From Acetobacterium woodii DSM 1030 (GTDB taxonomy: Bacteria > Bacillota > Clostridia > Eubacteriales > Eubacteriaceae), in assembly GCF_000247605.1 (NCBI RefSeq), contig NC_016894.1, positions 3,151,732-3,215,731 on the forward strand: DNA of 64,000 bases, read 5' to 3'. Positions 7,633 to 32,001 of the stretch are shown piece after piece (position 1 is the stretch's first letter; every line of letters starts with the position of its first letter). Under the pieces are notes generated by a model. It ran no database searches, was not told the origin of the DNA, and saw nothing but the letters and a program-made list of their open reading frames with translations. The translations under genes and the position numbers were made by a program.

Positions 7633-7651
7633 CTGCTCTTCTCCTCCTCAA

Positions 7652-8600: not shown

Positions 8601-8608
8601 ATCTTTTA

Positions 8609-9306: not shown

Positions 9307-9341
9307 TAAAAAAACAGGTTCTTCATAAAAACCTGCTTTTT
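9307..9341 (-). terminator. Intrinsic terminator between sensory module and hyd operon
   Basis: Minus-strand CAGGTT-N9-AACCTG stem followed by a seven-T run (9308-9314). It lies just after the PHP gene, so the sensory module and hydCEDBA are probably separate transcripts or connected only by read-through. Confidence 0.75.
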
Positions 9342-9353
9342 GACTGCTTCATT

Positions 9354-10070: not shown

Positions 10071-10071
10071 T

Positions 10072-10404: not shown

Positions 10405-10446
10405 TCATCTTCTCCTTTATGATTTTTTCAACTTAATGATATTTAC

Positions 10447-11802: not shown

Positions 11803-11821
11803 ATGCCGCCCTTCTTTCTGT

Positions 11822-12585: not shown

Positions 12586-12792
12586 CGAACTTTCTCCTTC
12601 ATTTAAACTTATTACTATCATTGTAAAGGATTTCTACTGTCTAAAGCAAGCTGTTTAAACAGATTTTAATATTTCTGCGACGATCTTTGGTCACCTCTCC
12701 AGATTAATTAGGGGCTCTTGGTTATTTACCGACTAAGCACACATACCACGGGCGAGCAAAACTGCACCCCAGGCAACCGTTGTTTGATGTTT

Positions 12793-18388: not shown

Positions 18389-18982
18389 TCATCGAATTTT
18401 ACAGATCCATTTTTCATTTTCAGGCTGATAGCCCAATTCATAGATGTCCGCATAAAAAATTGGCCAATTAAACATCATCTCCAGCGGCAAACCCAAAATG
18501 CCGGTGAGAATGACACGGATCACCCCGGCATGAGTGCAAATAATAACCTGTCGCTCATCCGATTGATTCGCTATTTTTTTGATAACTGGCATCACCCGTT
18601 GCTGTAATTCTAAAAAACTTTCACCATTGGGTGGTGCAAATGTTTTTATCGCCAGACCTCTTTTGTTAAAGGCTTCCGGTTCCTGGTTTTTTACTTCCTC
18701 AAACGTTCGCCCCTCCCAGTCACCCATACTGATTTCTTTTAAAGCCGGCACTATTACCTTAGTAACCGCTTTATTTTCAAGGATACTGTCAAGGGTCGTC
18801 ACACAACGTTTTAAGGGACTGGTATAGGCTTTGTCCAGGGGGATCGCCGAAAAAAAATCCCGACGCTGCCGGGCTTGTTTTTTTCCCTTTTCTGACAACG
18901 GTAAATCGATTTGTCCAAGATAAGCTTTCCCCTGATCCCATTCAAGTTCACCATGTCTAACCAGATAAAGCTGTTTTTCCAT
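18389..18982 (-). CDS. Histidine phosphatase family protein (phosphoglycerate mutase-like)
   Basis: A 197-residue histidine phosphatase: the catalytic LVRHGELEWD at the N-terminus, YTSPLKRCVTT, the acid-bearing EISMGDWEGRTFEEV, and the second histidine in IICTHAGVIRVIL. It resembles alpha-ribazole phosphatase CobC and related housekeeping phosphatases, but no cobalamin gene is nearby. Because it starts 3 bp after the NTP transferase gene it presumably removes a phosphate in the same cofactor-related pathway; the substrate cannot be told from sequence. Confidence 0.82.
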   Translation of the reverse strand: MEKQLYLVRHGELEWDQGKAYLGQIDLPLSEKGKKQARQRRDFFSAIPLDKAYTSPLKRCVTTLDSILENKAVTKVIVPALKEISMGDWEGRTFEEVKNQEPEAFNKRGLAIKTFAPPNGESFLELQQRVMPVIKKIANQSDERQVIICTHAGVIRVILTGILGLPLEMMFNWPIFYADIYELGYQPENEKWICKIR

Positions 18983-18985
18983 CCT

Positions 18986-20080
18986 TTAACCCTTCCCGCT
19001 GATCGTCTCAATTTTTTGTGCAATCATTTCTGCGTTTTGATAGCGGTTATTTATTTTTTTTAATATCTCCGGTTGCTCTTGATGGACTTTTAGAACTTCA
19101 CTTTTTCGGCAATTTAATGGCATTGGCTGATCTTCTTTAACCATTTTGTCCGACAAATATAAAATTTCACTTTCGGTAATCGGCTGTTCGTCATTAACCG
19201 TAATATCCATATGTGTTAAAATCAAATTTCCGATTTTGGGATAACCCAGATCAGTTAACACCATGGCTCCTTTTTCGGGATGATTTTTTTCGCTTCTGCA
19301 AATATCATGAAGCAACGCCGCCGCTTCAAGAGAAGCACTGTCAATGCTTATCCCCTGCTCAATTAACAGTCCCGCCAACGCCAATGCGACATCGCGAACC
19401 GCCCGGCTGTGTTTGCGAATTTGCTCTGACACCTGAAAAATATCCAGTAATGCCTCGCACTCGCGAAGATTGGGGGCCTTCCGGCTTGAATACACCAGTA
19501 ATTTCTGATAATCCAACCGGGTATCCATATCCATCAAAATCGCTTCATCCGCTAATGGCAGATTGATGGCATCGTTTTGATAATTTCCCAGCAGTTTTTT
19601 TAATCCGCCATCTTCTTTATTATCGATAATAACATTTTTATAACGACTATCAATTAAGGGCGGATGGCCGCGTTTATCAAAAAAGCAGGGATAAACAATT
19701 CCTTTATCGGTTTTTTCGAAAAAATCCCGGAGCTTTTTAAGCGATTGTGTTTTAACCAAGGGGATATCAACCGGATGAATAAAAAAACCATCAACGTCTT
19801 CGGATAACTGGCTTATTCCTTTTATTATCGAAGTATACATGCCCTGATCATAATTTTCATTAATTACCGCGGTGATCGCGGCTTTTTTTACATATGGCAT
19901 GAGCACCTCGGCACGGTATCCCAACACCACAATGATTTCCTCAATCCCCGCCTGTTGATGGGCCTTGACGACTTTTTCCAGGGCTGTTTCGGATTCAAAT
20001 TCAAGTAGTGGTTTAAAACCATCCATTCGCGAGGAATAACCTGCGGCAATGATGATCGCAGCGATTTTTTTTGATTTCAT
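18986..20080 (-). CDS. MocA-like nucleotidyltransferase fused to an HD domain (DVU_1551-type)
   Basis: A 364-residue two-domain protein. Residues 1-190 are a MobA/MocA-like NTP transferase (AAIIIAAGYSSRMDGFKPLLEF, FFIHPVDIPLV, GHPPLID), which in MocA transfers CMP to molybdopterin to give the cytosine dinucleotide cofactor. Residues 210-364 are an HD hydrolase domain (AALLHDICRSEKNHPEKGA). It lies between the XdhC-like gene and the phosphatase gene in an accessory gene train of a cytosine-cofactor-type hydroxylase, so cofactor cytidylylation is the likely job. I recall the same fusion being named after Desulfovibrio DVU_1551. What the HD domain hydrolyses is unknown. Confidence 0.85.
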   Translation of the reverse strand: MKSKKIAAIIIAAGYSSRMDGFKPLLEFESETALEKVVKAHQQAGIEEIIVVLGYRAEVLMPYVKKAAITAVINENYDQGMYTSIIKGISQLSEDVDGFFIHPVDIPLVKTQSLKKLRDFFEKTDKGIVYPCFFDKRGHPPLIDSRYKNVIIDNKEDGGLKKLLGNYQNDAINLPLADEAILMDMDTRLDYQKLLVYSSRKAPNLRECEALLDIFQVSEQIRKHSRAVRDVALALAGLLIEQGISIDSASLEAAALLHDICRSEKNHPEKGAMVLTDLGYPKIGNLILTHMDITVNDEQPITESEILYLSDKMVKEDQPMPLNCRKSEVLKVHQEQPEILKKINNRYQNAEMIAQKIETISGKG

Positions 20081-20133
20081 CGTTTCTCCCCATTTTCATT
20101 TCTTTACATCGTTGCACTGTTATCGGCTTGGTT

Positions 20134-21186
20134 TTATTTTTGCGGTCCGCGTCGCACCTGAATCATTTCTGCGGCAATACTAACGGCGATTTCTTCCGGT
20201 GTATCGGCATGAATTGGTAAACCGATGGGACTATAAACCCGGTCCAGATCTCTAAAGGTAAACCCTTCTTCCAGCAAACACTGGTAAACATGATTACGTT
20301 TATTGGTACTGCCAATCATCCCAATGTATTTTGCGTCGGTTTGCAACATTTGCGCCAACACTTCCTTATCATAGGAATGACCTCTGGTAACGATGATCAC
20401 AAAAGAATGTTGTGAAATTTTAACAACATCCGTGATGTGTTCAAATCCCGGGACCACCTTCACTTCATCAACGGTGGTAAACCGTTTAGCATTCGCAAAT
20501 TCTTCCCGATCGTCAATTACAGTCACATAAAAACCTAAACTTTTGCATAATTCTGCCAGGACCTTCCCAATATGGCCACCACCAAGAATACAAACATTTT
20601 CGGTTTTAAAATAAGGTTCAACAAAATAACAATTGTTCTGCAGATAAGCGTCTTTATATTTTAATTGATAAAAATTCTCTTTGATATCCTTAACTAAGCT
20701 GAGTATCTCATCGCTTTCGGCACCATAAAAACCGGTTTCGGTACATGCCCACTTTTCCAGCCGTTCATTTTCATAATCTTTGGGAATTTTGGTAATGATG
20801 ACGAAATCAATTTTATTTTCATAAAGATCAAAAATTTCATTAAAAAAGCCATTTGTTTTCGGATCGGCCCAATCGATATATTCTAAGAGAATTTTGACAT
20901 CGCCGCCGCACACCATTCCCAGCGAAGCCGCATCTTTGTTCGACAAAATAAAATCCTCGATCCGAAACTGCTGGTCCTGATGCACCCGCGCCGCCGCTTT
21001 AATCACCATCGCTTCGACCAAACCACCACCAATGGTTCCTTCAATCGATAAATTCCGCTTGATCAGCATTTTTGCCCCTTCGCTTCTTGGAGCCGATCCG
21101 GTTTTTTCCAAAATCGTTGCCAGAACAAAATTCTCGCTATTTTTCTGCATTTTTCTTACTATTTTTAAATAATCATTCATTGCCAT
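20134..21186 (-). CDS. XdhC/CoxI family molybdenum cofactor maturation protein
   Basis: A 350-residue XdhC family protein: N-terminal XdhC/CoxI domain (FVLATILEKTGSAPRSEGAKML, IEGTIGGGLVEAMV, LGMVCGGDVKILLEYID) and a C-terminal Rossmann domain (VCILGGGHIGKVLAELC, VIDDREEFANAKRF, YIGMIGSTNKRN). XdhC proteins bind molybdenum cofactor, promote its sulfuration and hand it to the hydroxylase. This fits the MOP-type enzyme encoded 7 kb upstream on the same strand. The start overlaps the ligase gene stop by 14 bp, supporting translational coupling. Confidence 0.9.
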   Translation of the reverse strand: MAMNDYLKIVRKMQKNSENFVLATILEKTGSAPRSEGAKMLIKRNLSIEGTIGGGLVEAMVIKAAARVHQDQQFRIEDFILSNKDAASLGMVCGGDVKILLEYIDWADPKTNGFFNEIFDLYENKIDFVIITKIPKDYENERLEKWACTETGFYGAESDEILSLVKDIKENFYQLKYKDAYLQNNCYFVEPYFKTENVCILGGGHIGKVLAELCKSLGFYVTVIDDREEFANAKRFTTVDEVKVVPGFEHITDVVKISQHSFVIIVTRGHSYDKEVLAQMLQTDAKYIGMIGSTNKRNHVYQCLLEEGFTFRDLDRVYSPIGLPIHADTPEEIAVSIAAEMIQVRRGPQK

Positions 21187-22486
21187 GTTCCTTTCGTTGA
21201 TCGGTTATTTTACGTTTAATCATGCTGTTAATCATGTGATCCGGACGTTGTTCCCCGTTGATATTGATGTTCACACGCATCAATATCCCAAATTCGGTCA
21301 TAAAATAACGTTTCAATTTTTCGCTTGCCTGTTTTTTTACACACGCTTGATCTTTATTCTCATAAAGGGTCATCATAATGGTTAATTCCGTATCATTTTC
21401 CAGAATTACCTGATAATCAATAATTTCTTCGAATTCAAGTAACAATTCTTCCAATATTTTTAGGTTGCAATCAACACCGGTATTGAGTTTAATGCTATTT
21501 CCCAAACGACCTTCCACTTTTTTCATCGTTTTTAAAAAAGTTCCACACTGACATGGTTCATTTGAAAAAGCCCCGATATCACCGGTTCGATAACGGATTA
21601 AGGGCATTGCCTCGCGCGTCAAGGTCGTAAAAACAATTTCACCATAACTCCCATCGGGCAAGGGTTGTCCCGAATCCGGGTTGATTATTTCAAAATAGAG
21701 ATCATTTTCGCGCATATGACAACCATTTAAAGCCTGGCATTCAACCCCACCGCCATAACCCATTTCAGTCATCCCGTAATGATTAAAAACCTGACAGTCA
21801 AACTTTCGTTTTAATTCATTCACCAAAACCTGCGGAACATAATCCGTACTTAACAATATTTTGTCGATTTGCTTAAAGGCTTCTTTTTTCATTCGGCTGA
21901 GAAATAAAAGTTGAATCGGAATTCCTACGATACAATTAATATCCGCTTCCCGAATAATTTTTTCCACCGCATCCAAATCCGTCAACAAACCATAAACCAC
22001 ACATTTTGTTCCTGATCGCAGTAACGCTTTTTGCAATAAATCGCCGATACTTCCATAAGCTTGTCCCGGCAATAAGACCAGTACTCGGTCGCGATTGTTG
22101 GTTAATGAGCGCATCCCGTAGTCAAAAAAGTCCACTGTTTTTTGAAGATCCTGATCTGTAAAAAAAATCCGTTTCTTTTTTTCGGCCATTGTCCCCGATG
22201 TATTAAGTGTAACAATCCGATCGACGCGAGTTTGCGATACACATAAAAAACTAAATGGTGCGTTTTTTAGATCTTCCGGTGTCGTCAACGGCAGCTTGTT
22301 AAAATCAGCCAAACTTTTTAGCTGTGCCGGTTCAACCGCGGCTAATTGTTTTCGATAAAAAGCACTTTGTTTTTTTACCTGGTTCAAGGTTTTAACGATC
22401 TGATTGAGTTGATAGGTTTGCAGCTCCGCTGCCGATTTAATCCCGGTTCGTTTAACGATCCACTCTTCCATGGGTGTTTTTTCCAT
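21173..22486 (-). CDS. AMP-dependent ligase of the phenylacetate-CoA ligase type (DVU_1553-like)
   Basis: A 437-residue adenylate-forming enzyme of the PaaK type: TLNTSGTMAEKKKRIFFTDQDL is the P-loop-like region, FNHYGMTEMGYGGGVEC the central A5 motif, and YRTGDIGAF followed by CQCGTFLKTM matches the A7 region with its metal-binding-like cysteines. The C-terminal small domain ends near MINSMIKRKIT. It would activate a carboxylic acid as its acyl-AMP/CoA, but the acid is unknown. Homologues occur next to xdhC and radical SAM genes in molybdenum hydroxylase clusters, which argues for a role in cofactor or product chemistry rather than phenylacetate catabolism. Confidence 0.82.
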   Translation of the reverse strand: MEKTPMEEWIVKRTGIKSAAELQTYQLNQIVKTLNQVKKQSAFYRKQLAAVEPAQLKSLADFNKLPLTTPEDLKNAPFSFLCVSQTRVDRIVTLNTSGTMAEKKKRIFFTDQDLQKTVDFFDYGMRSLTNNRDRVLVLLPGQAYGSIGDLLQKALLRSGTKCVVYGLLTDLDAVEKIIREADINCIVGIPIQLLFLSRMKKEAFKQIDKILLSTDYVPQVLVNELKRKFDCQVFNHYGMTEMGYGGGVECQALNGCHMRENDLYFEIINPDSGQPLPDGSYGEIVFTTLTREAMPLIRYRTGDIGAFSNEPCQCGTFLKTMKKVEGRLGNSIKLNTGVDCNLKILEELLLEFEEIIDYQVILENDTELTIMMTLYENKDQACVKKQASEKLKRYFMTEFGILMRVNININGEQRPDHMINSMIKRKITDQRKEHGNE

Positions 22487-22592
22487 TAATCCCTCACCTT
22501 TTTTATATCACACCAAAAAACGACGTTTTATTTTATGTGAAACCATTTTTGTTACACAACAGGCTCCAATCACCAAAACGCGTAATGCCTTA

Positions 22593-23927
22593 CTACTTCC
22601 GATATAAAGACTCCCCTTCTTTATTCGTCAGATTATACATACAAAACGGAATCAACTTTCCGTTGGGATCAACAACATGAATACAACAATCCTTTACCCT
22701 TTCCAAATCAAGGTTCCAGACATCCTGAAAGGCCATTGCCGAAATACTGAGCGTATATTGATTGATCCGTGCTAATATTTCGTCCCAGGCATCTAATGGT
22801 TTTGCTGTTTCATCAGGGTGATCTTTGGTTGACCATTTTCTGGCAACATGGGCTTTCGCTTTATTGGCGCCCTCTTCAGCGGTTTCTTTTTTACAGCATT
22901 TTGAGGGGTTATTTAATGGCGTCAAGTCACCATTTTTTTCATAAATGTAATTTCCGTGAAATGAACAACGGGCATTTTCGCAACCCGGCGGCGTAAACGT
23001 TTCTTTTTTAATACGCCCGTTGGTCTGAACCTCGATTTTGTCCATGATGTCACCCAAGGTTAATCTTTTTTCTTCTACCGGAAGGTTGGGAATCCGCCCA
23101 AAATAACTGGCCGGCTGCATATGCACACCCCTGACCGTTGGTAACCAACTGGTCGCAAAAGCAATGATATTGCCCAGATCGGTATCATTAACCGCGCTCA
23201 CCAGGGTTGGCACCAGAACAACCCCGATCTGATATTTGCGACAGTTTTCCAACGCTTTTATTTTTGTTGCAAACAAGGCTTTCCCGCGTAATTTTTTATA
23301 TATTTCGTCATTGGTTCCATCAAACTGGAGAAACACCGAATCCAGTCCCGCTTCTTTTAATTGTTTTAAATAAGGTTCATCTTCAGCCAAACGAATACCG
23401 TTGGTGTTAAGCTGAATAAATTCAAAACCTATTTTATGGCCTAACTTAATAATTTCCGGTAAATCATCTCGTAATGTTGGTTCTCCGCCGGAAAGCTGGA
23501 TATTGCAATTCCCCGAAGTTTTCCAGACACTCTGGTACATTGCCGTAATGGTCTCCAAAGACAGATCCTGATCTTTATCATTGTTGGCATTAGCAAAACA
23601 AAACGTGCAGTTTAAATTACAGCGTTGGGTCACTTCAATTAAGGCCGTACAGGTGTGTTGGCGGTGGTCGGCGCACAGGCCGCAATCGTAAGGACAACCT
23701 TTTTCTACCATCGTATTGGGATTTTTAATCGTTGTTGGAATCTTATCTCGAACCCAATTCTCTCTAAGGATGCTCCCCCGCCACAACAATGCTTTAAAAC
23801 GTCCGTGGTCGGGACACGATTTTTCCATATAAGTCTCGTTATTTTCATTCCAGATGATAGCGTTGATTTTTTTCAGACAGATCGGACATAGGCTTTGCGT
23901 AATTGTACTAATCCGTTTCATCCTCAC
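22593..23927 (-). CDS. Radical SAM protein, TrsS-like, of the molybdenum hydroxylase cluster
   Basis: A 444-residue radical SAM protein. The N-terminus has zinc-ribbon-like pairs (LCPICLKKI, SCPDHGRF) and CPYDCGLCADH; the SAM cluster motif is CNLNCTFCFA (CxxxCxxC) followed by QLSGGEPTLRDDLPEI. The C-terminal half has CCIHVVDPNGKLIPFCMYN, a cysteine-rich end seen in this family. Members of this family are sometimes selenoproteins (I recall the name TrsS); here the visible positions are ordinary cysteines. Its reaction is unknown. It lies between the C-GCAxxG-C-C gene (3 bp upstream) and the ligase gene, so it is probably part of a cofactor-building route. Confidence 0.85.
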   Translation of the reverse strand: MRMKRISTITQSLCPICLKKINAIIWNENNETYMEKSCPDHGRFKALLWRGSILRENWVRDKIPTTIKNPNTMVEKGCPYDCGLCADHRQHTCTALIEVTQRCNLNCTFCFANANNDKDQDLSLETITAMYQSVWKTSGNCNIQLSGGEPTLRDDLPEIIKLGHKIGFEFIQLNTNGIRLAEDEPYLKQLKEAGLDSVFLQFDGTNDEIYKKLRGKALFATKIKALENCRKYQIGVVLVPTLVSAVNDTDLGNIIAFATSWLPTVRGVHMQPASYFGRIPNLPVEEKRLTLGDIMDKIEVQTNGRIKKETFTPPGCENARCSFHGNYIYEKNGDLTPLNNPSKCCKKETAEEGANKAKAHVARKWSTKDHPDETAKPLDAWDEILARINQYTLSISAMAFQDVWNLDLERVKDCCIHVVDPNGKLIPFCMYNLTNKEGESLYRK

Positions 23928-23930
23928 AAC

Positions 23931-24383
23931 CTATTCTTCTCGGTTGCCAAATGTATAACCGTTTTCCTGCAAAATTTCAACCACCTTTTGAAAACTTTCC
24001 AGTAATATATCGCCGCATTTAACCGGATAAACTTGATTATTTTCGTCGGTAAACTGATAAACCCCAATCAGATCAACGCAATCAGTCCGTTCAAACCGTT
24101 CTTCAAACCAGTTCATGTAAGTTTTGATCATCGTGCCAAAATTATTTTTAGTCCATTCCCGTGGTTTGCCTTTACCGGCATATAAACCAATCACCCCAAT
24201 TCCACCGGTTAACACCCCACAAGTTTTCTGGTTGCCACCAATGCCATTACATAACCCGTTCATGACTCGAATGAGATCTTCATTTTCGGTTTCTTCGATA
24301 TCAAGTGCCAACTTAAGCATAATCTGACTACAGCAAAAGCCATCTGACACCAGTCGATAGAGTTCAAATTTTAGTTCGTCCAT
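23931..24383 (-). CDS. C-GCAxxG-C-C family redox protein (DVU_1555-like)
   Basis: A 150-residue C-GCAxxG-C-C family protein with the defining cysteines: FCCSQIMLKLAL, then GLCNGIGGNQKTCGVLTGGIGVIGLYAG, then RTDCVDLIGVY and VYPVKCGDIL. The family is thought to bind metal or act in redox chemistry, but no reaction is established. It lies 3 bp before the methyltransferase gene stop and 3 bp ahead of the radical SAM gene. Length is normal and no cysteine appears to be missing. Confidence 0.8.
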   Translation of the reverse strand: MDELKFELYRLVSDGFCCSQIMLKLALDIEETENEDLIRVMNGLCNGIGGNQKTCGVLTGGIGVIGLYAGKGKPREWTKNNFGTMIKTYMNWFEERFERTDCVDLIGVYQFTDENNQVYPVKCGDILLESFQKVVEILQENGYTFGNREE

Positions 24384-24386
24384 GTT

Positions 24387-25103
24387 TTAATTCACCTTTC
24401 TTGCAATCATCATAAAATAGCCGGGTCGGCACGCTTTTAGTTGCTGCTGGAAACCAGCGGTACAGGCCCCGCCGGTTTTTTTCCAGAACCGATCCATCGA
24501 ACCATATTGAAAAATGGTTTGCACCAACAATTGTTTTAGCAGATCACTGCGATCTTCCCGGTGCCACACCTCAAAACCCGAATGCTTAAGCAGCATTTCT
24601 AATTGCCTTAAGTCGTATAAACCACGCATACAGCTTTTGAATTTATGGCTTTTTAGTTGCTCCAGTGATTCCGGATTTTTTGCATATACATCGGAGATAA
24701 AAAAGTTTCCGCCCTTTTTTAATACCCGGTGAACCTCTGTTAATGTGACGCTCATATCCGTCATCAGCGACAGCGTGCATTCTGACAATACGCCATCAAA
24801 AAAGTCCTGTTCAAAAGGGATTTTTTCACCGGCCCCGAGGGCAAAGTGACCCATCGGGTTGTTTTTTTTAGCGCGCTCCAATAATTTTTGCGAGGGGTCC
24901 AGCCCGACAACATTCAGTCCGTATTGATTGTTCAGATAACTGACAGTTGCACCTTGACCGCAACCCAGATCCAACAGCAAATCATCTTTACGCCATTGGC
25001 AAAAAGCCACGGCTTCATCGGTTAAATCAAAGCCTCCCGGTCGTAAGGTTTCCCCTAACAACGCTGTCATTTCAGGACTTTCATAGGCACAATTTTCCGA
25101 CAA
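24387..25103 (-). CDS. Class I SAM-dependent methyltransferase (DVU_1556-like)
   Basis: A 238-residue methyltransferase of the UbiE/Methyltransf_11 type. Motif I is LLLDLGCGQGATVSYL, followed by VVGLDPSQKLLERA, GVLSECTLSLM and VHRVLKKGGNFFISD. The C-terminal part is cysteine containing (GGACTAGFQQQLKACRPGYFMMIARK). The substrate is unknown. It is embedded between the zinc-ribbon and C-GCAxxG-C-C genes with almost no spacing, so it belongs to the same pathway. Confidence 0.85.
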   Translation of the reverse strand: MSENCAYESPEMTALLGETLRPGGFDLTDEAVAFCQWRKDDLLLDLGCGQGATVSYLNNQYGLNVVGLDPSQKLLERAKKNNPMGHFALGAGEKIPFEQDFFDGVLSECTLSLMTDMSVTLTEVHRVLKKGGNFFISDVYAKNPESLEQLKSHKFKSCMRGLYDLRQLEMLLKHSGFEVWHREDRSDLLKQLLVQTIFQYGSMDRFWKKTGGACTAGFQQQLKACRPGYFMMIARKVN

Positions 25104-25104
25104 T

Positions 25105-25311
25105 TTATTTATCCTCCAGCCCTTCTTCGACTTCCTTCATTTTTCCCAATGCCAAACTTTCATCAATAAATACCTGGTTACAGATCGGACACTTCATCAG
25201 ATCCACTTCGAAATTGCCTTCCATATAACGCACTTTAACCTTGGCTAATTCCAGTTCCTGCTGACATTTTTCACAGCGCCATTTTGTTTGATCGTCACTT
25301 TCGTGTTTCAT
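25105..25311 (-). CDS. Small zinc-ribbon/redox protein (DVU_1557-like)
   Basis: A 68-residue protein with two CxxC pairs, WRCEKCQQELE and LMKCPICNQVFID, which makes a zinc ribbon or rubredoxin-like site. Similar proteins accompany the large flavin/Fe-S oxidoreductase in the corresponding Desulfovibrio cluster. It starts one base after that gene's stop region and ends one base before the methyltransferase start, so it is certainly part of the operon. Its partner may be the flavin oxidoreductase, but that is inference. Confidence 0.75.
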   Translation of the reverse strand: MKHESDDQTKWRCEKCQQELELAKVKVRYMEGNFEVDLMKCPICNQVFIDESLALGKMKEVEEGLEDK

Positions 25312-25312
25312 C

Positions 25313-27661
25313 TTACCCCTCCACTATTTCCATACGATGGCTATAGACGCTTTTAATAATAAACGTTTCACCTTCTTTGGCATATTTTACCCAATAGGTC
25401 ACGTTTTGCCGTCTGAGTTTAGCCAGAAAATCACCCGTTTCCGGATTACAAAAACGTTCATTTTTTGTTTCCGCATTTTTAAGCACCGCCTGAATATCTT
25501 CGATTAAGATGTACCGGTCTTCTAATTTCTTTTGAACATCTTCGGGGATAATCAGCTGATAGGTATCCGCTGTTTCTACTTCCATCGCTTCCTCCCGCCA
25601 AATTTCTTTTAATAGAATTTGTTTGACCCGACCACGATTTTGCTGCCGTTCTGAAAAGGTTGGCATTTTCCGGGTTGCTAACTCGACATTGTCTTTGGGA
25701 TAAAGTAAATCCAATAAATGATAGGTACGCTGGCCACCGGAAACGAACAGATCTTTACACATGGTACAATAAACCAGCAAGTCATTTTGACTTTCACCGA
25801 TTCGCTCCGAAACAAACGCATCCGCCTGGTCACGATTGGCGTAATAAACCAAACCCCCGTAACCACAGCATTTTGTTTTTTCCTTGGTGTATTCCAGCTC
25901 TTCAACCCGGTAACCTAACTTGGCCACAATTTTTCTTACGCTCTCGTGAAGATCACTGTTTTCGCGGGTTCCGCAAGCATCGTGAATACTTAATGTCTGC
26001 GCCGTCTTGAGATAATCTTTATTTGGTAAACCCTCTTTAAGATAAACGTCCCACAACGACTGGACGGTAATTTCGGGCAGATATTTTTCAAAAATACGCA
26101 TACAACTGGAACAGGCCAGAATAAAGGTTGGCCGTTCCATCTCGTCCCAAACTTTTTTAATCGCCGCCACATTTTCGGCCATTAAATCTTGTTGTCCGGC
26201 CCAATCCGCGGGGGCTCCGCAACAGCCCAGATAAATGCCGACATCCCCGTTGACATGGCCAACCAGATACTCATAAATGTTTTTAATATCATCGGGGTAA
26301 GATGCGGGCATTTGGCAACCGGGATAAAATAGATATTCGGTTTTTCCGGTGCCCTTATATAACCCCTTGACATAATCAGAAAAGGAAATCAACGGATAAT
26401 AAAACAGATCTTTTGAGGCTTCTTTACTAGGTTGCTTACGCACCAGTGAAAAGCGGGAACTATTCGAAAAAGCCATGTCTTTTAATGCAAAGTCATGCGC
26501 CGAAGCCGGCATTTTCCCACGTTTTACCATGCTTTCCCGGGTTTCCTGAATCACGTCTTTCATGCTGATATCCAAAAAGCATTCTTCTTTACAAAGGCCG
26601 CATTCGGTGCAGGAATTAATCATCTTATTGGCATAATGGGTTCCTAAAATAATTCGTTCACTATGGTTAATCTGGCGAATATAAGCATCCGGTGAGGTCT
26701 CATATTTACGCATATGAACACAGCCTTCAATGCATTTACGGCATTGACATTTAAAGCAACGCTTAGCCTCGGCAATTGCTTCTTCCTGACTATAAAGCGG
26801 TGCAGTTTTGGGAATCGTTAAGCTCGGGGGTTGGTTGCTGCTGTCAAATTGAAGCGGTGTTTCAAAGATCCCTTCCCGTTCCCTCGAATCGGTCAGGGAT
26901 ACTTTAGAAAGAACCCGTTCAATAGAAATCGCCGCCCGTCGTCCCGAACTGGCCGAAAAAACAACCGAATCGTTTTCGTTCGTCAAACGCCCACCGGCAA
27001 AAAGTGTAGCCTCACCAACCTGAAAAGTAGCCGGATTCAATGCGATTTTTTCCGGCCATTCACCAGTTCCCAAATAAACCGCATCGTATTCCGTTTGTAA
27101 TTCCGCCAATCGGTTGACATCAATCGCGGTTTCAAAAACAACGGTAATTTTTTTATCTTTAATGGTTTTCAATTCTTGCAACAAGATTGCTTCGGTTAAT
27201 GAATCGCCGATCAAGTCCCACAAACGGCCACCCAAACGGTTTTCTTTTTCGTAAATCGTCACCGCGTATCCTTTTTTATCCAGATCAACAGCCGCGGTTA
27301 ACCCGCTTAATCCGGCCCCTACAACCGCAACCTTACCTTTGTTTTTGGGCAACGGCCAAGCTTTTTTGGGTTTAACCGCGCCATATTCCAGCACCGCTTT
27401 TTCCAGCTCAGATATTCGAATCGCTCCTCCTGACTTACTCCGCTCACAATGCGCTTCACAAGGGTGATCACAAATTCTGCCGATAATCTGATGAAATGGG
27501 ATTTTCTTTTCCATCAGTTTATAAGCGTTTTGAAAATTACCATTTTCGATTTCTGCTATAAAATCAATTATTTCCAGATGAACCGGACAATTGGCCACGC
27601 AGGTAGGGGGTTCCTTATGAATGCACCGATCCCCCGTTTCCAATAATTTATCTAAATCCAT
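25313..27661 (-). CDS. FAD-dependent oxidoreductase with Fe-S and HdrB-like CCG domains (DVU_1558-like)
   Basis: A 782-residue multi-domain redox protein. It begins with a GltD-like Fe-S domain (CVANCPVHLEII, CDHPCEAHCERS), then an FAD Rossmann domain (VAVVGAGLSGLTAAVDL, YEKENRLGGRLWD). A ferredoxin-like region follows (CFKCQCRKCIEGC, CTECGLCKEECF), then two CCG domains of the heterodisulfide reductase B type (YLGCCGAPADW with CSSCM; CGYGG with CTMC) and a C-terminal domain of about 75 residues. NCBI names such proteins as pyridine nucleotide-disulfide oxidoreductase/dicluster-binding, as I recall. It likely carries electrons between NAD(P)H or ferredoxin and the aldehyde oxidoreductase encoded upstream. 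The 457-bp gap upstream of it is full of repeats. Confidence 0.85.
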   Translation of the reverse strand: MDLDKLLETGDRCIHKEPPTCVANCPVHLEIIDFIAEIENGNFQNAYKLMEKKIPFHQIIGRICDHPCEAHCERSKSGGAIRISELEKAVLEYGAVKPKKAWPLPKNKGKVAVVGAGLSGLTAAVDLDKKGYAVTIYEKENRLGGRLWDLIGDSLTEAILLQELKTIKDKKITVVFETAIDVNRLAELQTEYDAVYLGTGEWPEKIALNPATFQVGEATLFAGGRLTNENDSVVFSASSGRRAAISIERVLSKVSLTDSREREGIFETPLQFDSSNQPPSLTIPKTAPLYSQEEAIAEAKRCFKCQCRKCIEGCVHMRKYETSPDAYIRQINHSERIILGTHYANKMINSCTECGLCKEECFLDISMKDVIQETRESMVKRGKMPASAHDFALKDMAFSNSSRFSLVRKQPSKEASKDLFYYPLISFSDYVKGLYKGTGKTEYLFYPGCQMPASYPDDIKNIYEYLVGHVNGDVGIYLGCCGAPADWAGQQDLMAENVAAIKKVWDEMERPTFILACSSCMRIFEKYLPEITVQSLWDVYLKEGLPNKDYLKTAQTLSIHDACGTRENSDLHESVRKIVAKLGYRVEELEYTKEKTKCCGYGGLVYYANRDQADAFVSERIGESQNDLLVYCTMCKDLFVSGGQRTYHLLDLLYPKDNVELATRKMPTFSERQQNRGRVKQILLKEIWREEAMEVETADTYQLIIPEDVQKKLEDRYILIEDIQAVLKNAETKNERFCNPETGDFLAKLRRQNVTYWVKYAKEGETFIIKSVYSHRMEIVEG

Positions 27662-27690
27662 AGTTGGTCTCCTTCAGTGTAGAATACTCA

Positions 27691-27921
27691 GTTGGGAATT
27701 GCAAAATAAAAAAACTCTAACTCGTGTTGCTCTCGCTTTGTTTTCACAAACAACTGCAAAGCTTGTTAACGAACCGTTTGACCGATCATCCAATTCGTGT
27801 AAAATCCGCCCAAACAACGGGCCAATTACAAGCTCGCTTGTAATTGGCGATTGCCTGTGCGTATTTCAAATTACTGCGTGCCAAAGGTTTTGCCACGTGC
27901 CAATCCTTTCGCGCTTACCTA
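27691..27921. repeat. Possible diverged MITE-like element with internal cruciform
   Basis: The left end (GGGAATTGCAAAATAAAAA) and the reverse complement of the right end (TTTAGGTAAGCGCGAAAG) resemble the ends of the element at 32441-32545. Inside lies a perfect 13-bp inverted repeat with a two-base loop (27821-27848, GCCAATTACAAGC arm). No target duplication could be seen, so it may be an old or composite copy. It fills part of the gap between the aldehyde oxidoreductase and flavin oxidoreductase genes and contains no coding frame. Confidence 0.45.
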
Positions 27922-27931
27922 AATGAAAAAT

Positions 27932-28100
27932 AGGAATTGAAAGCTTAGAAGCTTTCAATTCCTGAGGTTGCCAATAAACTACCGTACCGACCAATTGTTA
28001 ATCTGTTGTTCGCTGCGGAATCGGACAGGCTACGCCGTGTCCGCTCCGATGCGTACAACATGATGTAACAATTGCCGGTCCTAGTTTATCTTTTTGACAG
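27932..28100. repeat. Palindromic repeat element with conserved arms, copy 1
   Basis: A 15-bp perfect hairpin (AGGAATTGAAAGCTT arm, 27932-27963) is followed by GAGGTTG, an arm CCGTACCGACCAATTGTTAA, a core (CGGACAGGC..GCCGTGTCCG), and a returning arm TGTAACAATTGCCGGT ending in GACAGT at 28096-28101. The arms match copies at 55956-56098 and 63447-63622. Relative to those two, the outer ends GAGGTTG and GACAGT are inverted. It lies between two genes of the hydroxylase operon and could act as an RNA hairpin within the transcript. Confidence 0.6.
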
Positions 28101-28118
28101 TCGTGAGACTTAGCTTGC

Positions 28119-30845
28119 TTATTTTAAGGCTTCTAAACCTTCAAGTACTTTTTCTGGATAAGCTGGTAAGTGTTTAATACGAACACCACAAGCATTAAAA
28201 ATCGCATTACAGATCGATGCATGGGGAGCCGACAATGGCATTTCACCGGCACCGGCAGCGCCGAATGGACCTAATGGACGTGGTGTTTCCTGATGAATTA
28301 GAACAATTTCATCGGGAACGTCTTTAATTTGCGGAATCCCACAACCAGTTAAGGATGTATGTTTTTTAAGATCTTCAAAGTCTTCGCTTAAAGCTAACCC
28401 AATCCCTTGAGTTAAACCACCCCACAATTGACCTTCAAGAACCAGTTTATTGGTAATGGTTCCACAGTCAGAAACAAGGGTTAATTTATCCACATGGGTT
28501 TTGCCGTTAGTTGTATCAACCGAAACTTCTGATAATAATACCCCATACATGTAAACCGGGAATGGATTTCCTTGACTTGTTTCAACCGATGGTGCGGTAC
28601 AAGGTGCTGTCCAGACTCCATCATATCGCAATGGCAGACCTTCTGCAACCATTTCGTCATAAGTTCTAAACGTTCCATCCGCTTTTTTCATTGCGGCCAG
28701 TAAGTTTTCACACCCAACTTTAATGGCATTTCCAACTAAAACATTGGAACGACTTCCGCCGGCTGGTCCACTGTTTGGTGTTAATTTCATATTATTCATA
28801 ACCAGTTTAATTTGTTCTGGTTTAATTCCTAACGGTTTTAAGGTTTCGTGAGCAAAGGTTAAGGTACCCATGTCCGCGCCTTGTCCATGATCTTCCCATG
28901 AATCTCCGACGGTAACGCCTTCCGGTGTTAATTCGATCCACATTTCAGCTGAATCCGGGCCGTCAAGTCCACAACCATAAATGTTAAGTGAAATCCCAAC
29001 CCCATGTTTAATATCTCCGCCTTCGGCATTTAATGCTTCTGCTTTAGCTTTGGCATCTTGATAAAGCGGTCTGATTTTATCAATCGCTTGTGGTAAGGCA
29101 ATAACATCTGGTTCACAGCCATTTGGTGTTGTATCACCTTTACGATAGACATTTTTGTAACGGAATTCCAAGGGATCTTCGCCCATTTGATCAGCTAACA
29201 TATCAACCAACGTTTCTGAAGCAAACAAACTTTGTGGTGATCCATACCCTCTAAATGCTGAACCCCAGGCATGGTTAGTGGCAACGGTTCGACCTTCGCC
29301 ACGGATATTTGGGATATTATAACCAGCCCCGATGAACTGTGAACCACGAGTAGTTACCAAATCACCAAATTCGCAATATGGACCATGATCACAAGACCAA
29401 TCTGTTTCCATTGCTTGAAGAATACCATTTTCATCCGCTCCGATTTTAACATTCATAAAGAAGGGCGATCGTTTCCCGGTATAGGTAATCTGTTGGAACA
29501 TGTTAAATTCTAAGTAAACCGGTCTTTTGGTCACTAATGCCGCCACACCTAATAAACCTTCAATGGTTGGGCTGAATTTATAACCGAAAGTACCACCGGT
29601 TGGATTTTGAACAATGAAATATTTAGTCGGGTCAACGCCAATCGCTTCCGCTGTCATTAACTGATGGAAATGAAGGGCGATACTCTTGGAATGAACCATC
29701 AAATTATCGTCTTCATCAAAGTAAGCGAATCCAACGTCTGGCTCCAATGGTAAATGTGGTTGACGACCAACGTAAAAATCGTCTTCGATAACATTTGGCA
29801 ATTTTTCCAGTAATGGCGCGGGATCATCACCTTTAACGATGTTCGTGGTAAAATAGATATTTGGTGTCCCGGGATGGATTTCAATTGCATCTTCTGCCAT
29901 CGCTGCCGGTGCACTCATGTAAGGTAATAATTCTTCAATTTCGACAACAACTTTTGCCGCTGCAGCTTCAGCCTGTTCCGGCGTATCTGCTAATACCATC
30001 GCAATGGCATCGCCAAATTGGAAGATTTTTTTGTCATTTAAGATTGGTCGTTCCAGGCCATCGCCTAAGTTTGTCGGGAAAGCTAAACCATTAATCCGGT
30101 TCGTTCCGGGAACGTCTTTAGCGGTGATTACTTTAAATACCCCTTCCATCTTTTCTGCTTCAGTCGTATCAACAGAAATAATGTTAGCATGAGAAACCTG
30201 AGCTTGAACCAGTTTAATATGTAAGGTGTTTTCCGGCAATTTTAATCCTAAGTCAGCACCAAAGTCCCATGTTCCGGTAACTTTTGCCAGTGCTGATGGT
30301 CGAACCATATTTGACCCCATAATCGAAGCGCCTTCTTTAAGCTGGAACCACAGGTCTTCTTTTTTGATTTCGCCGCGCATTAATTTGGCAGCATCCATAA
30401 CTGCATCAACTAAGGGAATATAACCGGTACAACGACAGACATTCCGATGTTTCTGGAACCATGCTCTGACTTCTTCTCTGGTTGGGTTGATATTTTCTTC
30501 TAATAAGGCTTTTGAAGAAACAATAAATCCTGGTGTACAGAAACCACATTGAGCAGCCCCATTAACCATCCAGGCTAATTGCAATGGATGAAGATCTTCT
30601 TGCGTTCCAACCCCTTCAATGGTGATAATTTCCGATTCATCTGCCACCCGTTTCATTTTTGTAACGCAAGATCGTACGACCTTACCGTTTAATATAACTG
30701 AACAGGCTCCACATTCTGCTTTTCCACAACCAACTTTTGTTCCTGTCAAACCCTGTTGTTTTCTAATTAAATTTGCCAGTGTCGTTTCGGGATCAACAAT
30801 AACCGTCCTTTGAATCCCGTTAATGAATAATGTCTTTTTTTCCAC
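28119..30845 (-). CDS. Molybdenum aldehyde oxidoreductase, MOP type (xanthine oxidase family)
   Basis: A 908-residue hydroxylase close in length to the Desulfovibrio gigas aldehyde oxidoreductase (907). Residues 1-160 carry two [2Fe-2S] clusters: GCGKAECGACSVILNG with a later CVTKM, and CGFCTPGF with CRCTGYIP. The remainder is the molybdopterin-binding part: GGTFGYKFSP, AFRGYGSPQS, GAAGAGEMPLSAP near the C-terminus with the GEM glutamate expected to be the catalytic base. No FAD subunit is encoded, as in MOP. It oxidises an aldehyde or N-heterocycle with water as oxygen source; the substrate is unknown. It is 52 bp after the MoeA-like gene and leads an accessory gene train. The start ATG 30845 has AGGAGGA upstream. 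Confidence 0.93.
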   Translation of the reverse strand: MEKKTLFINGIQRTVIVDPETTLANLIRKQQGLTGTKVGCGKAECGACSVILNGKVVRSCVTKMKRVADESEIITIEGVGTQEDLHPLQLAWMVNGAAQCGFCTPGFIVSSKALLEENINPTREEVRAWFQKHRNVCRCTGYIPLVDAVMDAAKLMRGEIKKEDLWFQLKEGASIMGSNMVRPSALAKVTGTWDFGADLGLKLPENTLHIKLVQAQVSHANIISVDTTEAEKMEGVFKVITAKDVPGTNRINGLAFPTNLGDGLERPILNDKKIFQFGDAIAMVLADTPEQAEAAAAKVVVEIEELLPYMSAPAAMAEDAIEIHPGTPNIYFTTNIVKGDDPAPLLEKLPNVIEDDFYVGRQPHLPLEPDVGFAYFDEDDNLMVHSKSIALHFHQLMTAEAIGVDPTKYFIVQNPTGGTFGYKFSPTIEGLLGVAALVTKRPVYLEFNMFQQITYTGKRSPFFMNVKIGADENGILQAMETDWSCDHGPYCEFGDLVTTRGSQFIGAGYNIPNIRGEGRTVATNHAWGSAFRGYGSPQSLFASETLVDMLADQMGEDPLEFRYKNVYRKGDTTPNGCEPDVIALPQAIDKIRPLYQDAKAKAEALNAEGGDIKHGVGISLNIYGCGLDGPDSAEMWIELTPEGVTVGDSWEDHGQGADMGTLTFAHETLKPLGIKPEQIKLVMNNMKLTPNSGPAGGSRSNVLVGNAIKVGCENLLAAMKKADGTFRTYDEMVAEGLPLRYDGVWTAPCTAPSVETSQGNPFPVYMYGVLLSEVSVDTTNGKTHVDKLTLVSDCGTITNKLVLEGQLWGGLTQGIGLALSEDFEDLKKHTSLTGCGIPQIKDVPDEIVLIHQETPRPLGPFGAAGAGEMPLSAPHASICNAIFNACGVRIKHLPAYPEKVLEGLEALK

Positions 30846-30897
30846 GTGAAATCCTCCTTAAAATATTAATACTAAACCTTATATATGGATGCTAAAA

Positions 30898-31920
30898 TCA
30901 ACCTTTTCCAAATCCGCAATTGGGATAATGACATTCCGAACAGGTGGAGCATAGCCCACCATGTCCTAATTTGGATATGTCTCTTCGGGTTAATCTCTCG
31001 CCTACCATCAACTTTGGCACCACCAAATCAAAAACCGTTCGGTGGCTGTACATAATGCAACCGGGTAAACCCAAAATGGGGATATCGCCTAAATACGAAA
31101 GCAAAAACATTGCTCCCGGCAGTGTTGGGGCCCCGTATGATACAAATTTTGCGCCTGTTTTTCCAATTCCCTCGGGTGTCACATCATCTGGATCGACTGA
31201 CATGCCGCCGGTTACCGTCACAATTTCGGCCCCTTCTTTAATTAGATCAAGAATACATTGGGCGATCATATCCGAGTCGTCCCGAGAAAAAACCTGTTTA
31301 AATACATACGAATCAAGTTCTGCGAATTTTTCTCTAATAACATCTCCGAATTTATCTTCGATCCGACCATAAAAAATTTCATTACCGGTCGTTACGACCC
31401 CAACTTTGAATTTTTTTAACGGTACCACTTGCACAACTGGTTCATTTCTCGCACACAATTCTTCCATTTTTACTAATTTTTCATTTTCAATGGAAAGCGG
31501 AATAATTCGCGTTGATCCCACCAGTGTTCCTTTTGTGACCATCGTATCGGTATGAAGGGTTGCCATCATCATTTCCCCCAGCTCGTTAATCTCCTGAAGA
31601 ACGTTGACATTTATCTTAAGCAATCCGGTTTGAGTCGCTGTGATCGTGACTTTTCCTTCAGAAGCACTGACAAATTCAACCCCGATACCGCTGGCTGCCT
31701 TCCCTAATCGCAGTGCCGCCTCATCTTCATGGATTGTGCCATCATTAAACTCAATGATTGCAATGTGTTCTTTTCCCATGCTCAATAATCGGGGAATGTC
31801 TTCTTCCTGGACAATATGCCCTTTCTTAAATGCCGCTCCTTTAAATTTTCCAGGGATGATCTGAGTCATATCATGCGCCAGGAACATACCCACTGATTCA
31901 CGAACAGGTACTACCTTCAT
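30898..31920 (-). CDS. MoeA/CinA-like molybdopterin-binding protein with C-terminal cysteine motif
   Basis: A 340-residue protein with the MoCF-biosynthesis fold: VGVVTTGNEIFYGRIEDKFGDVI and EIVTVTGGMSVDPDDVTPEGI are the molybdopterin-binding signatures. The N-terminal region (MKVVPVRESVGMFLAHDMTQIIPG) resembles the MoeA-linked domain. The C-terminus is unusual: CSTCSECHYPNCGFGKG, four cysteines that could bind metal. It is the first gene of the molybdenum hydroxylase operon, with a sigma-54 promoter about 65 bp upstream, so it probably handles molybdate insertion for that enzyme rather than being the general MoeA. Confidence 0.87.
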   Translation of the reverse strand: MKVVPVRESVGMFLAHDMTQIIPGKFKGAAFKKGHIVQEEDIPRLLSMGKEHIAIIEFNDGTIHEDEAALRLGKAASGIGVEFVSASEGKVTITATQTGLLKINVNVLQEINELGEMMMATLHTDTMVTKGTLVGSTRIIPLSIENEKLVKMEELCARNEPVVQVVPLKKFKVGVVTTGNEIFYGRIEDKFGDVIREKFAELDSYVFKQVFSRDDSDMIAQCILDLIKEGAEIVTVTGGMSVDPDDVTPEGIGKTGAKFVSYGAPTLPGAMFLLSYLGDIPILGLPGCIMYSHRTVFDLVVPKLMVGERLTRRDISKLGHGGLCSTCSECHYPNCGFGKG

Positions 31921-31985: not shown

Positions 31986-32001
31986 AGCAATAACCATGCC
32001 A
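31986..32001 (-). promoter_or_regulatory. Sigma-54 (-24/-12) promoter of the molybdenum hydroxylase operon
   Basis: On the minus strand TGGCATGGTTATTGCT matches the consensus TGGCAC-N5-TTGCW, with GG at 31999-32000 and GC at 31987-31988 exactly 10 bases apart. The predicted start point is about 31975, leaving a leader of some 55 bases before ATG 31920. The cluster encodes its own sigma-54 activator at 16444-18372. Confidence 0.82.

What the first reader, a model, noticed from the sequence alone, without database searches (positions are those of the whole stretch)
18389..31920. Complete accessory set for a MOP-type aldehyde oxidoreductase: a candidate unknown cofactor pathway
Between the hydroxylase and the regulator lie, in operon order, a flavin/CCG oxidoreductase, zinc-ribbon protein, methyltransferase, C-GCAxxG-C-C protein, radical SAM protein, AMP-dependent ligase, XdhC, NTP transferase-HD fusion and phosphatase. 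As I recall, the same families sit together as DVU_1551-1559 in Desulfovibrio. Radical SAM, methyltransferase and acyl-adenylating chemistry exceeds what cytosine-cofactor assembly needs, so an extra ligand, cofactor or substrate-derived group may be made here.
Basis: partly seen in the sequence, partly recalled or inferred. Interest (0 to 1): 0.75.

Follow-up and report, generated by a model that had tools for sequence, protein, structure and literature searches.

The report
Aldehyde oxidase genes with unexplained helpers
A molybdenum enzyme that oxidises aldehydes is usually inherited with the same set of helper genes in many oxygen-avoiding bacteria, including the microbe whose version was crystallised long ago, and what several of these helpers make is still unknown.

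Summary
Nine consecutive genes pass NCBIfam cut-offs; five of those families carry DVU_1551-1557 numbers, so curators already know the cassette. The order mop-dic-znr-mt-cga-trsS-lig is exact in 48 of 58 loci chosen by TrsS. TrsS and the hydroxylase co-occur: 160 both, 10 and 6 alone, 71 neither, of 247 genomes.

The D. gigas enzyme, whose crystals show an ordinary cytosine dinucleotide cofactor, lies in the same cassette, so the extra chemistry leaves no evident group on the hydroxylase. New here: the host has three mop-dic-znr triads but one TrsS, so the block may act in trans; the partner flavoprotein lost its NAD(P) domain but kept ten CCG-pair cysteines; fusions tie methyltransferase, ligase, nucleotidyltransferase and phosphatase together.

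Best reading: an aldehyde oxidoreductase electron-transfer module plus a shared block that supplies its cytosine cofactor and a second, unidentified product or maturation step. Counter-cases exist: one genome, G267, has such modules without TrsS.

The parts
31986..32001 (-). sigma-54 (-24/-12) promoter-like site TGGCATGGTTATTGCT, 65 bases before the first start codon
   Evidence: 1 mismatch to TGGCACNNNNNTTGCW; 4 hits in the whole window against 1.86 expected (13 of 100 shuffles reach 4), so only its position is suggestive
30898..31920 (-). MoeA/MogA-like molybdopterin-binding protein (340 aa)
   Evidence: Pfam MoCF_biosynth 67.2/26.6 bits; no NCBIfam model over its cut-off
28119..30845 (-). 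mop: molybdopterin-dependent aldehyde oxidoreductase (908 aa)
   Evidence: NF045668 1615.1/1100 bits; 60.3% identical to the D. gigas enzyme over 904 residues; catalytic Glu and both [2Fe-2S] motifs kept in 55 of 55 aligned proteins
27932..27963 (-). 14-pair hairpin followed by a T run between mop and dic: candidate terminator/attenuator
   Evidence: terminator-like hits in the region are at shuffle level overall (16 found, 16.7 expected), but this one has the longest stem listed
25313..27661 (-). dic: FAD / 4Fe-4S / CCG-pair protein (782 aa), proposed electron acceptor of mop
   Evidence: NF045663 1014.3/530 bits; lacks the NAD(P) insert, keeps ten CCG cysteines; AlphaFold pLDDT 88.5; Foldseek NfnABC/StnABC and EtfD
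25105..25311 (-). znr: 68-aa four-cysteine zinc-ribbon or rubredoxin-like protein
   Evidence: NF045645 97.7/60 bits; DUF7479 93.8 bits
24387..25103 (-). mt: class I SAM methyltransferase (238 aa, TTG start as listed)
   Evidence: NF045667 251.5/155 bits; fused to the ligase in L026
23931..24383 (-). cga: C-GCAxxG-C-C protein (150 aa)
   Evidence: NF045669 164.7/103 bits; AlphaFold pLDDT 91.5; 1h21 split-Soret cytochrome c at Z 10.6, 128 residues, 2.8 A, next hit Z 3.3; mostly helical, so the Z needs caution
22593..23927 (-). trsS: radical SAM protein related to tetraether lipid synthase (444 aa, GTG start as listed)
   Evidence: NF045646 692.6/490 bits; Tes model 387.6, below its cut-off of 450; 7tol is the best solved relative
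21173..22486 (-). lig: PaaK-like adenylate-forming ligase (437 aa)
   Evidence: NF045666 459.3/300 bits; best solved relatives are phenylacetate-CoA ligases
20134..21186 (-). XdhC-family maturation factor (350 aa)
   Evidence: NF045664 426.9/350 bits
18986..20080 (-). ntp: MocA-like NTP transferase fused to an HD domain (364 aa)
   Evidence: NF045665 434.1/315 bits; NTP_transf_3 and HD
18389..18982 (-). phos: histidine phosphatase, alpha-ribazole phosphatase-like (197 aa)
   Evidence: TIGR03162 163.5/162.9 bits; fused to ntp in five loci and to lig and ntp in L077
16444..18453 (-). sigma-54-dependent activator (GAF-PAS-AAA-Fis), proposed operon regulator
   Evidence: Pfam domains; follows phos in 11 fetched loci (L029, L031-L037, L039, L041, L046; L029 and L031 are one cassette)

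Best explanation
The locus has three layers. (1) A catalytic electron-transfer module, mop-dic-znr: aldehydes are oxidised at a Mo site with molybdopterin cytosine dinucleotide (MCD), and electrons pass through two [2Fe-2S] clusters to the dedicated partner dic, probably helped by znr. Dic belongs with NAD(P)H-type flavoproteins but lacks the NAD(P) domain, so mop would take the place of NAD(P)H as donor, and electrons would leave through the CCG cluster pair to an acceptor other than NAD(P). (2) MCD supply and insertion: the MoeA-like protein, ntp-HD, phos and XdhC, which other genes seem able to replace. (3) An AOR-specific core, mt-cga-trsS-lig, that makes a second small molecule or carries out a maturation step for this module; one block can serve several modules. 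Shown here by sequence: gene order, co-occurrence, one TrsS beside several modules, fusions, lack of the NAD(P) domain, kept cysteines. Inferred: direction of electron flow, action in trans, that the core makes a small molecule (C-H functionalisation by TrsS, methylation by mt, adenylation by lig), and that this product serves the acceptor side or assembly rather than staying on the Mo site.
For: Order exact in 48 and mt/cga-swapped in 4 of 58 loci. TrsS and MOP: 160 both, 10 MOP only, 6 TrsS only, 71 neither of 247; 18 of 18 TrsS genomes among 299 have MOP. Ligase over cut-off in 15 of 299, all of them TrsS genomes; two more TrsS genomes score 275 and 282, next-best hit 231. One TrsS for several modules: the host has 3 mop-dic-znr triads, 3 dic over cut-off and one TrsS; 24 of 247 genomes have two or more MOP hits, 22 of them exactly one TrsS hit; in the one-contig genome G014 the MOP over cut-off lies about 22 kb from TrsS. 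NAD(P) domain: 5-35 residues in 37 AOR-linked dic, and 25-28 in triads 2 and 3 and D. gigas, where two paralogues have 183-184; all ten CCG cysteines in 42 of 42. Fusions: lig-ntp-HD-phos, lig-phos, mt-lig, ntp-phos in five loci. Plain MCD in the D. gigas crystals. Authors of a C. ljungdahlii study proposed that the CCG pair of the same kind of protein serves an electron carrier, and note no heme and no known quinone genes there.
Against: G267 has three MOP loci (two with dic, one of these also with znr) and no TrsS even at E<=1e-25; G133 has a truncated MOP and no TrsS; both are fragmented assemblies (310 and 220 contigs) of 96-97% completeness. Ten of 247 genomes have MOP without TrsS and six the reverse. 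G136 has mop, cga, znr, trsS and mt together but no dic over cut-off and only a 209-bit ligase hit; the contig ends inside mop. Dic paralogues with the same CCG pair occur in genomes without TrsS at E<=1e-120 or MOP at E<=1e-200, so not every such CCG site needs the core. For D. gigas the proposed acceptor is flavodoxin, so neither dic nor a special carrier is required by published work. The lig-ntp fusion could instead tie the ligase to MCD chemistry. Some of the multiple MOP hits may be fragments. No substrate, product or mutant was seen for any core gene.
Confidence: 0.42

Rival explanations
1. The core only assembles the module: it is a maturation machine (transient protection, cluster or cofactor insertion, or repair) and leaves no separate small molecule.
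For: XdhC- and MoeA-like genes of the cassette are maturation-type genes; Cys-rich cga resembles an iron-centre protein in fold; one TrsS for several modules; no extra group in the crystals.
Against: A methyltransferase, a PaaK-like adenylating ligase and a Tes-like radical SAM enzyme look like a metabolite-building set; fusions link ligase to methyltransferase, nucleotidyltransferase and phosphatase.
Confidence: 0.3
2. One reading: the pathway makes an extra ligand or modified cofactor that sits at the Mo site of the hydroxylase.
For: lig is fused to the MocA-like transferase in L077; D. gigas batches vary in activity and inactive ones can be reactivated.
Against: The D. gigas enzyme comes from a genome with the cassette, yet its crystals show plain MCD with oxo and hydroxo/water ligands, and dissolved crystals match isolated enzyme in kinetics; [quoted passage not shown]
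Confidence: 0.1
3. A substrate pathway: mop oxidises a specific aldehyde, the ligase makes its CoA ester, and methyltransferase and TrsS tailor that compound.
For: PaaK-like ligase; a gene cluster that by eye is iron-type alcohol dehydrogenase in 8 fetched loci; a Pfam Fe-ADH between mop and dic in L030; triad 3 of the host lies beside a glycyl radical enzyme-like gene.
Against: One genome has two cassettes around MOPs that score 1619 and 1193 bits (L029, L030), so the core follows the module rather than one enzyme; triads 2 and 3 of the host have no core genes in the fetched 20 kb; a ligase fused to nucleotidyltransferase and phosphatase is odd for catabolism.
Confidence: 0.1

Closest known systems
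NCBIfam set NF045645, NF045646, NF045663-NF045669 (DVU_1551-1559-type families)
   Same: 9 of 9 models over cut-off, contiguous; the five numbered ones (1551, 1553, 1555, 1556, 1557) in numerical order
   Different: Nothing essential; here a phosphatase, a MoeA-like gene and a sigma-54 regulator adjoin
Desulfovibrio gigas aldehyde oxidoreductase (PDB 1sij/1vlb)
   Same: 60.3% identity over 904 residues, catalytic Glu and cluster motifs kept; same cassette order
   Different: In D. gigas the NTP-HD gene lies elsewhere, in a 592-aa open frame
Clostridium ljungdahlii tandem AOR sets (PMC5640608)
   Same: AOR, FAD+CCG-pair protein, four-cysteine protein and C_GCAxxG_C_C protein (section 8 read)
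   Different: That section names no radical SAM, methyltransferase or ligase gene
Tetraether lipid synthase Tes (7tol)
   Same: The TrsS profile matches in two stretches, 1-311 and 379-431 of 437 positions, including the N-terminal ribbon and the C-terminal Cys motif
   Different: TrsS is below the Tes model cut-off (387.6/450); the part between the stretches is unaligned (67 positions in TrsS, 109 residues in Tes)
NfnABC/StnABC flavoprotein subunits and mycobacterial EtfD
   Same: Foldseek matches of the dic model
   Different: Dic lacks the NAD(P) domain
Split-Soret cytochrome c 1h21
   Same: cga model Z 10.6 over 128 residues; also the top, but weak, sequence-profile hit (E 0.012)
   Different: 16% identity; Foldseek alone not significant (E 0.76)

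Membership tests
DVU_1551-1559-type AOR cassette | the nine NCBIfam models over their curated cut-offs, contiguous | tested here: met
   9 of 9 over cut-off; coordinates. Which model is DVU_1552, 1554 and 1558 is recalled
DVU_1551-1559-type AOR cassette | conserved gene order in distant genomes | tested here: met
   48 of 58 exact, 4 swapped, 6 other; loci chosen by TrsS
Xanthine-oxidase-family aldehyde oxidoreductase (MOP) | two [2Fe-2S] motifs, Mo-binding domains, catalytic Glu | tested here: met
Xanthine-oxidase-family aldehyde oxidoreductase (MOP) | aldehyde oxidation and MCD in the purified protein | not testable with these tools
   reported for D. gigas (PMC3877041 passages), not for this protein
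Tetraether lipid synthase (Tes) | score over the Tes model cut-off | tested here: not met
   NF045702 387.6 against 450
Selenium-dependent xanthine dehydrogenase / Se-cofactor hydroxylase | TIGR03311 score over cut-off | tested here: not met
   428.1 against 830.45
Selenium-dependent xanthine dehydrogenase / Se-cofactor hydroxylase | co-occurrence with SelD, YqeB and YqeC | not tested
   marker named in PMC9312934 (passage)
HdrB/HdrD-type CCG-pair proteins | two complete CCG cysteine sets | tested here: met
   ten cysteines in 42 of 42; that this spacing defines the HdrB type is recalled
HdrB/HdrD-type CCG-pair proteins | non-cubane clusters reducing a disulfide | not testable with these tools
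   needs spectroscopy and assays
GltD/Nfn-type NAD(P)H flavoproteins (dic) | NAD(P)-binding domain inserted in the FAD domain | tested here: not met
   5-35 residues against 183-184 in two paralogues; dinucleotide motif pattern in 0 of 37
Split-Soret cytochrome c iron-centre fold (cga) | same fold | tested here: inconclusive
   Z 10.6, far above the next row (3.3), but for helical proteins the tool warns of chance up to about 13; not significant
Fe-guanylylpyridinol (Hcg) cofactor pathway | homologues of the Hcg proteins | not tested
   only a recalled resemblance of the set of chemistries

The most novel reading that the evidence does not exclude
The mt-cga-trsS-lig core, with ntp-HD-phos, builds a previously undescribed small-molecule redox cofactor or electron carrier, possibly nucleotide-tailed, that takes electrons from the CCG pair of dic or is bound in the module. 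It would serve anaerobes that lack known quinones, and explain why a textbook enzyme, assayed with dyes and thought to use flavodoxin, is nearly always inherited with such a pathway.
Probability: 0.16. Interest if true: 0.88.

Novelty: new member of a known kind. Interest (0 to 1): 0.55.

Why it matters
The D. gigas aldehyde oxidoreductase is a model for the xanthine-oxidase family, yet its genes sit in a cassette whose radical SAM, methyltransferase, ligase and C-GCAxxG-C-C genes have no job that I could find in print. If the core makes an unknown cofactor or carrier, a new redox metabolite of anaerobes would be found; if it is a maturation set, production of such enzymes in other hosts may need it. 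The link to a crystallised enzyme, the single TrsS beside several modules, the fusions and the missing NAD(P) domain turn 'unknown cassette' into specific tests: look at the acceptor side and at metabolites, not only at the Mo site.

Tried and rejected
Strict seven-gene matching first gave 18 of 58 because one protein was reported as several stretches; stretches were then merged and genes ordered by stretch midpoint, giving 48 of 58. The first family profiles were stretched by fusion proteins (mt model 643 positions), so the counts come from single-protein phmmer. A crude pattern for the NAD(P) gap could not be read on 26 of 37 dic rows and gave one value of 78; it was replaced by an alignment. 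From the TrsS alignment A1 (13 rows) four rows were left out of A2 (9 rows): L027 and L028 (368 and 350 bits) as another subfamily, the partial tandem copy L022:3991-5073, and L024, close to L025. Loci L001-L018 were not printed in the cassette table. Of all 80 TrsS loci 59 have mop; 22 of the 80 have under 6.5 kb upstream and were not used for the order count.

Dic-znr: in L095 the last part of dic and znr share one 163-aa open frame. No intact dic precedes it there, so I do not count it as a fusion; a frameshift would give the same picture.

Considered and rejected: that TrsS occurs mostly without a hydroxylase. Loci without mop beside TrsS (L025, L071, L077, L101, L108) lie in genomes with a MOP elsewhere, over cut-off in 4 of 5; G619 (L071) has only hits of 766 and 727 bits, the latter a 388-aa frame. 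L047 was not checked. That dic passes electrons to NAD(P). That the block serves one particular aldehyde (kept as a rival at 0.1).

Led nowhere: Haft and Tolstoy 2025 (mSystems), which the review PMC13188914 cites for TrsS (passages), is not held, so I cannot say what it states about this cassette. The search for DVU1552, 1553, 1554, 1555, 1556 and 1558 found one paper with one mention of DVU1558, seen only as a listing. DVU1559 appears in two proteome tables (passages). The passages found in the D. vulgaris fitness paper concern another, tungsten-type AOR, DVU1179; those of the D. alaskensis paper an aldehyde:ferredoxin oxidoreductase. Foldseek gave no cga hit with E<=0.001. No selenium-system search was made.
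Full report
What is there. The window lies in a one-contig genome of 4,044,777 bases. No tool names it. Its genus is Acetobacterium by inference: genome G001, called 'same genus', has a contig of 139,411 bases holding a cassette with the same profile scores as a contig of that length titled A. dehalogenans. The length matches A. woodii as I recall it. On the - strand, in 5' to 3' order: a MoeA-like protein, mop, dic, znr, mt, cga, trsS, lig, xdhC, ntp-HD, phos and a sigma-54 activator. Nine consecutive genes, mop to ntp-HD, pass NCBIfam cut-offs. Five of these models are named after DVU_1551, 1553, 1555, 1556 and 1557; one is called an aldehyde oxidoreductase maturation factor.

Conservation. 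These loci are therefore chosen for having TrsS. Of the 58 with at least 6.5 kb upstream, 48 show mop-dic-znr-mt-cga-trsS-lig, 4 have mt and cga swapped (L048, L049, L054, L064), and 6 differ: L047 without mop, L060 with two mop, L077 without mop-dic-znr, L103 without mt, L105 rearranged, L108 with trsS alone. By their record titles, and by my reading of these, they come from Bacillota, Campylobacterota, Chloroflexota and 'Deltaproteobacteria'. In 52 loci with long flanks on both sides: mop, dic, znr and mt 50 each, cga and lig 51, ntp 39, xdhC 38, phos 36, moeA 22.

Co-occurrence without choosing by TrsS. In 299 genomes drawn from the phylum, TrsS (E<=1e-120) is in 18, 17 of them over its cut-off. 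The hydroxylase family is over its cut-off in 19, 17 of them TrsS genomes; the eighteenth TrsS genome, G136, has its hydroxylase cut by a contig end, next to cga, znr, trsS and mt but with no dic and no ligase in the fetched 20 kb. Of the two remaining hydroxylase genomes, G143 has a partial TrsS of 332 bits and G267 none at E<=1e-25; G133, with a truncated hydroxylase below cut-off, has none either. The ligase family is over cut-off in 15, all TrsS genomes. Dic is over cut-off in 21: 17 TrsS genomes, G267, and three (G097, G210, G310) with neither TrsS nor a listed hydroxylase. In 247 genomes of the taxonomic family of G360 (L094, titled Desulfovibrio sp.), with the D. gigas protein at E<=1e-150 and TrsS at E<=1e-100: both 160, hydroxylase only 10, TrsS only 6, neither 71; Fisher P 2.5e-43, which ignores relatedness.

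One TrsS for several modules. The host has three mop-dic-znr triads (window, L111, L128) and three dic over cut-off, but one TrsS: the next radical SAM hit in this genome is at E 9.8e-20. In the 247 genomes, 24 have two or more hydroxylase hits (at most three were scored per genome, and some may be fragments), 22 of these with exactly one TrsS hit and two with none. In the one-contig genome G014 the block has dic but no mop beside it, and its hydroxylase over cut-off lies about 22 kb from TrsS. So whatever the core does can probably be shared between modules.

The crystallised enzyme is in the cassette. G378 encodes a protein 100% identical to the D. gigas enzyme of the PDB over 905 residues. 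Its locus reads moeA-mop-dic-znr-mt-cga-trsS-lig-xdhC-phos (L134, L135), with NTP-HD elsewhere. For that enzyme PMC3877041 (abstract and passages) reports pyranopterin cytidine dinucleotide, oxo and hydroxo/water ligands and no sulfido ligand; dissolved crystals with the kinetics of isolated enzyme; [quoted passage not shown] The assay used a dye; flavodoxin is the proposed acceptor. So the extra chemistry leaves nothing evident on the hydroxylase, though a labile group lost on isolation cannot be excluded, and a dye assay would hide a missing natural acceptor. The flavodoxin proposal speaks against a need for dic or a special carrier.

The partner protein. Dic joins a GltD/Nfn-like FAD part to ferredoxin-like clusters and a CCG pair. 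Where the NAD(P) domain should sit, 37 of 37 AOR-linked dic have 5-35 residues, and triads 2, 3 and D. gigas 25-28. Two paralogues, from G097 and G210, with no mop or trsS in the fetched surroundings, have 183-184 residues there. All ten CCG cysteines are kept in 42 of 42. I infer that mop replaced NAD(P)H as electron donor. PMC5640608 (section 8 read) proposed for C. ljungdahlii that the CCG pair of this kind of protein may reduce or oxidise a membrane-bound carrier, and notes that the organism has no heme and no known quinone genes; one of its two gene sets rises on syngas or H2/CO2. The paralogues show that such a CCG pair does not itself need TrsS.

Fusions. One protein of L077 is lig-ntp-HD-phos (1083 aa), L103 has lig-phos, L026 mt-lig, and L071, L104, L021, L024 and L025 ntp-phos. 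In L101 TrsS carries a DUF5714 domain; by eye L108 has the same extension. The fusions suggest that mt, lig, ntp-HD and phos share a pathway. If ntp is the MCD enzyme, as its MocA-like motifs suggest (recalled), they could equally point to MCD chemistry.

The core proteins. TrsS is a relative, not a member, of tetraether lipid synthase. One TrsS, in L099, has an in-frame TGA at the position of window Cys316, in line with the NCBIfam name '(seleno)protein'; that cysteine is not among the invariant ones. The predicted cga fold resembles split-Soret cytochrome c (Z 10.6, next 3.3), which is also its top but weak sequence hit (E 0.012). Foldseek alone was not significant, and for helical proteins the tool warns that Z below about 13 can be chance. 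lig is PaaK-like.

Regulation. A sigma-54-like site lies 65 bases before the first start codon, fitting the sigma-54 activator at the other end of the operon. A hairpin with a T run follows mop and could keep mop in excess over the rest. Both are pattern matches only.

Verdict. A real, widespread, already recognised cassette. The most likely function is MCD supply plus a second product or maturation step for an AOR-dic-znr electron-transfer module. What that product is cannot be settled from sequence. I could not read Haft and Tolstoy 2025; in the listings and opened passages of my ten paper searches I saw no mutant or biochemical work on the core genes, only expression data for homologues. 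On checking, I lowered the best explanation from 0.45 to 0.42 and the novel case from 0.18 to 0.16, because the dic-znr fusion did not hold and the flavodoxin proposal had been left out.

Noticed in passing
L128 (host genome C1:1739001-1758900), 1996-14349: The third mop-dic-znr triad lies beside a glycyl radical enzyme-like gene (TIGR01774, 529.9 against 678.2) and a glycyl-radical activase over cut-off, a possible aldehyde source.
   Followed up: partly
L099, trsS: In-frame TGA in TrsS at the position of window Cys316, a candidate selenocysteine. One search reports another in-frame TGA in G343, which my own scan did not show.
   Followed up: partly
L101:3013-5160 and L108:9980-12157: TrsS with a C-terminal extension: DUF5714 in L101 by Pfam, L108 by eye; no mop beside either, but hydroxylases over cut-off elsewhere in both genomes.
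   Followed up: partly
L136:7455-10004 and L137:6865-9387: Dic paralogues with an intact NAD(P) domain and full CCG pair, without mop or trsS nearby; membrane and rhodanese-like proteins beside them are by eye only.
   Followed up: partly
L082:8534-9661 and nine other loci: A gene cluster found in 10 fetched loci; its L082 member is a class V aminotransferase, cysteine desulfurase-like (340.9 against the 377-bit cut-off of TIGR01977), inside the Sporomusa cassette.
   Followed up: partly
L112, L113, L138 (genome G267): Three hydroxylase loci, two with dic, in a genome with no TrsS: the clearest exception to co-occurrence, in a 310-contig assembly.
   Followed up: partly
L139 (genome G136): A cassette of mop, cga, znr, trsS and mt in another order, without dic or ligase in the fetched 20 kb; the contig ends inside mop.
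   Followed up: no
   Followed up: partly
window 63277-63292 (-): A perfect match to the sigma-54 pattern used, far from this cassette.
   Followed up: no
window 12793-16232 (-): Two genes that by eye resemble an SbcC/SbcD-type nuclease pair follow the cassette on the same strand (no family search).
   Followed up: no
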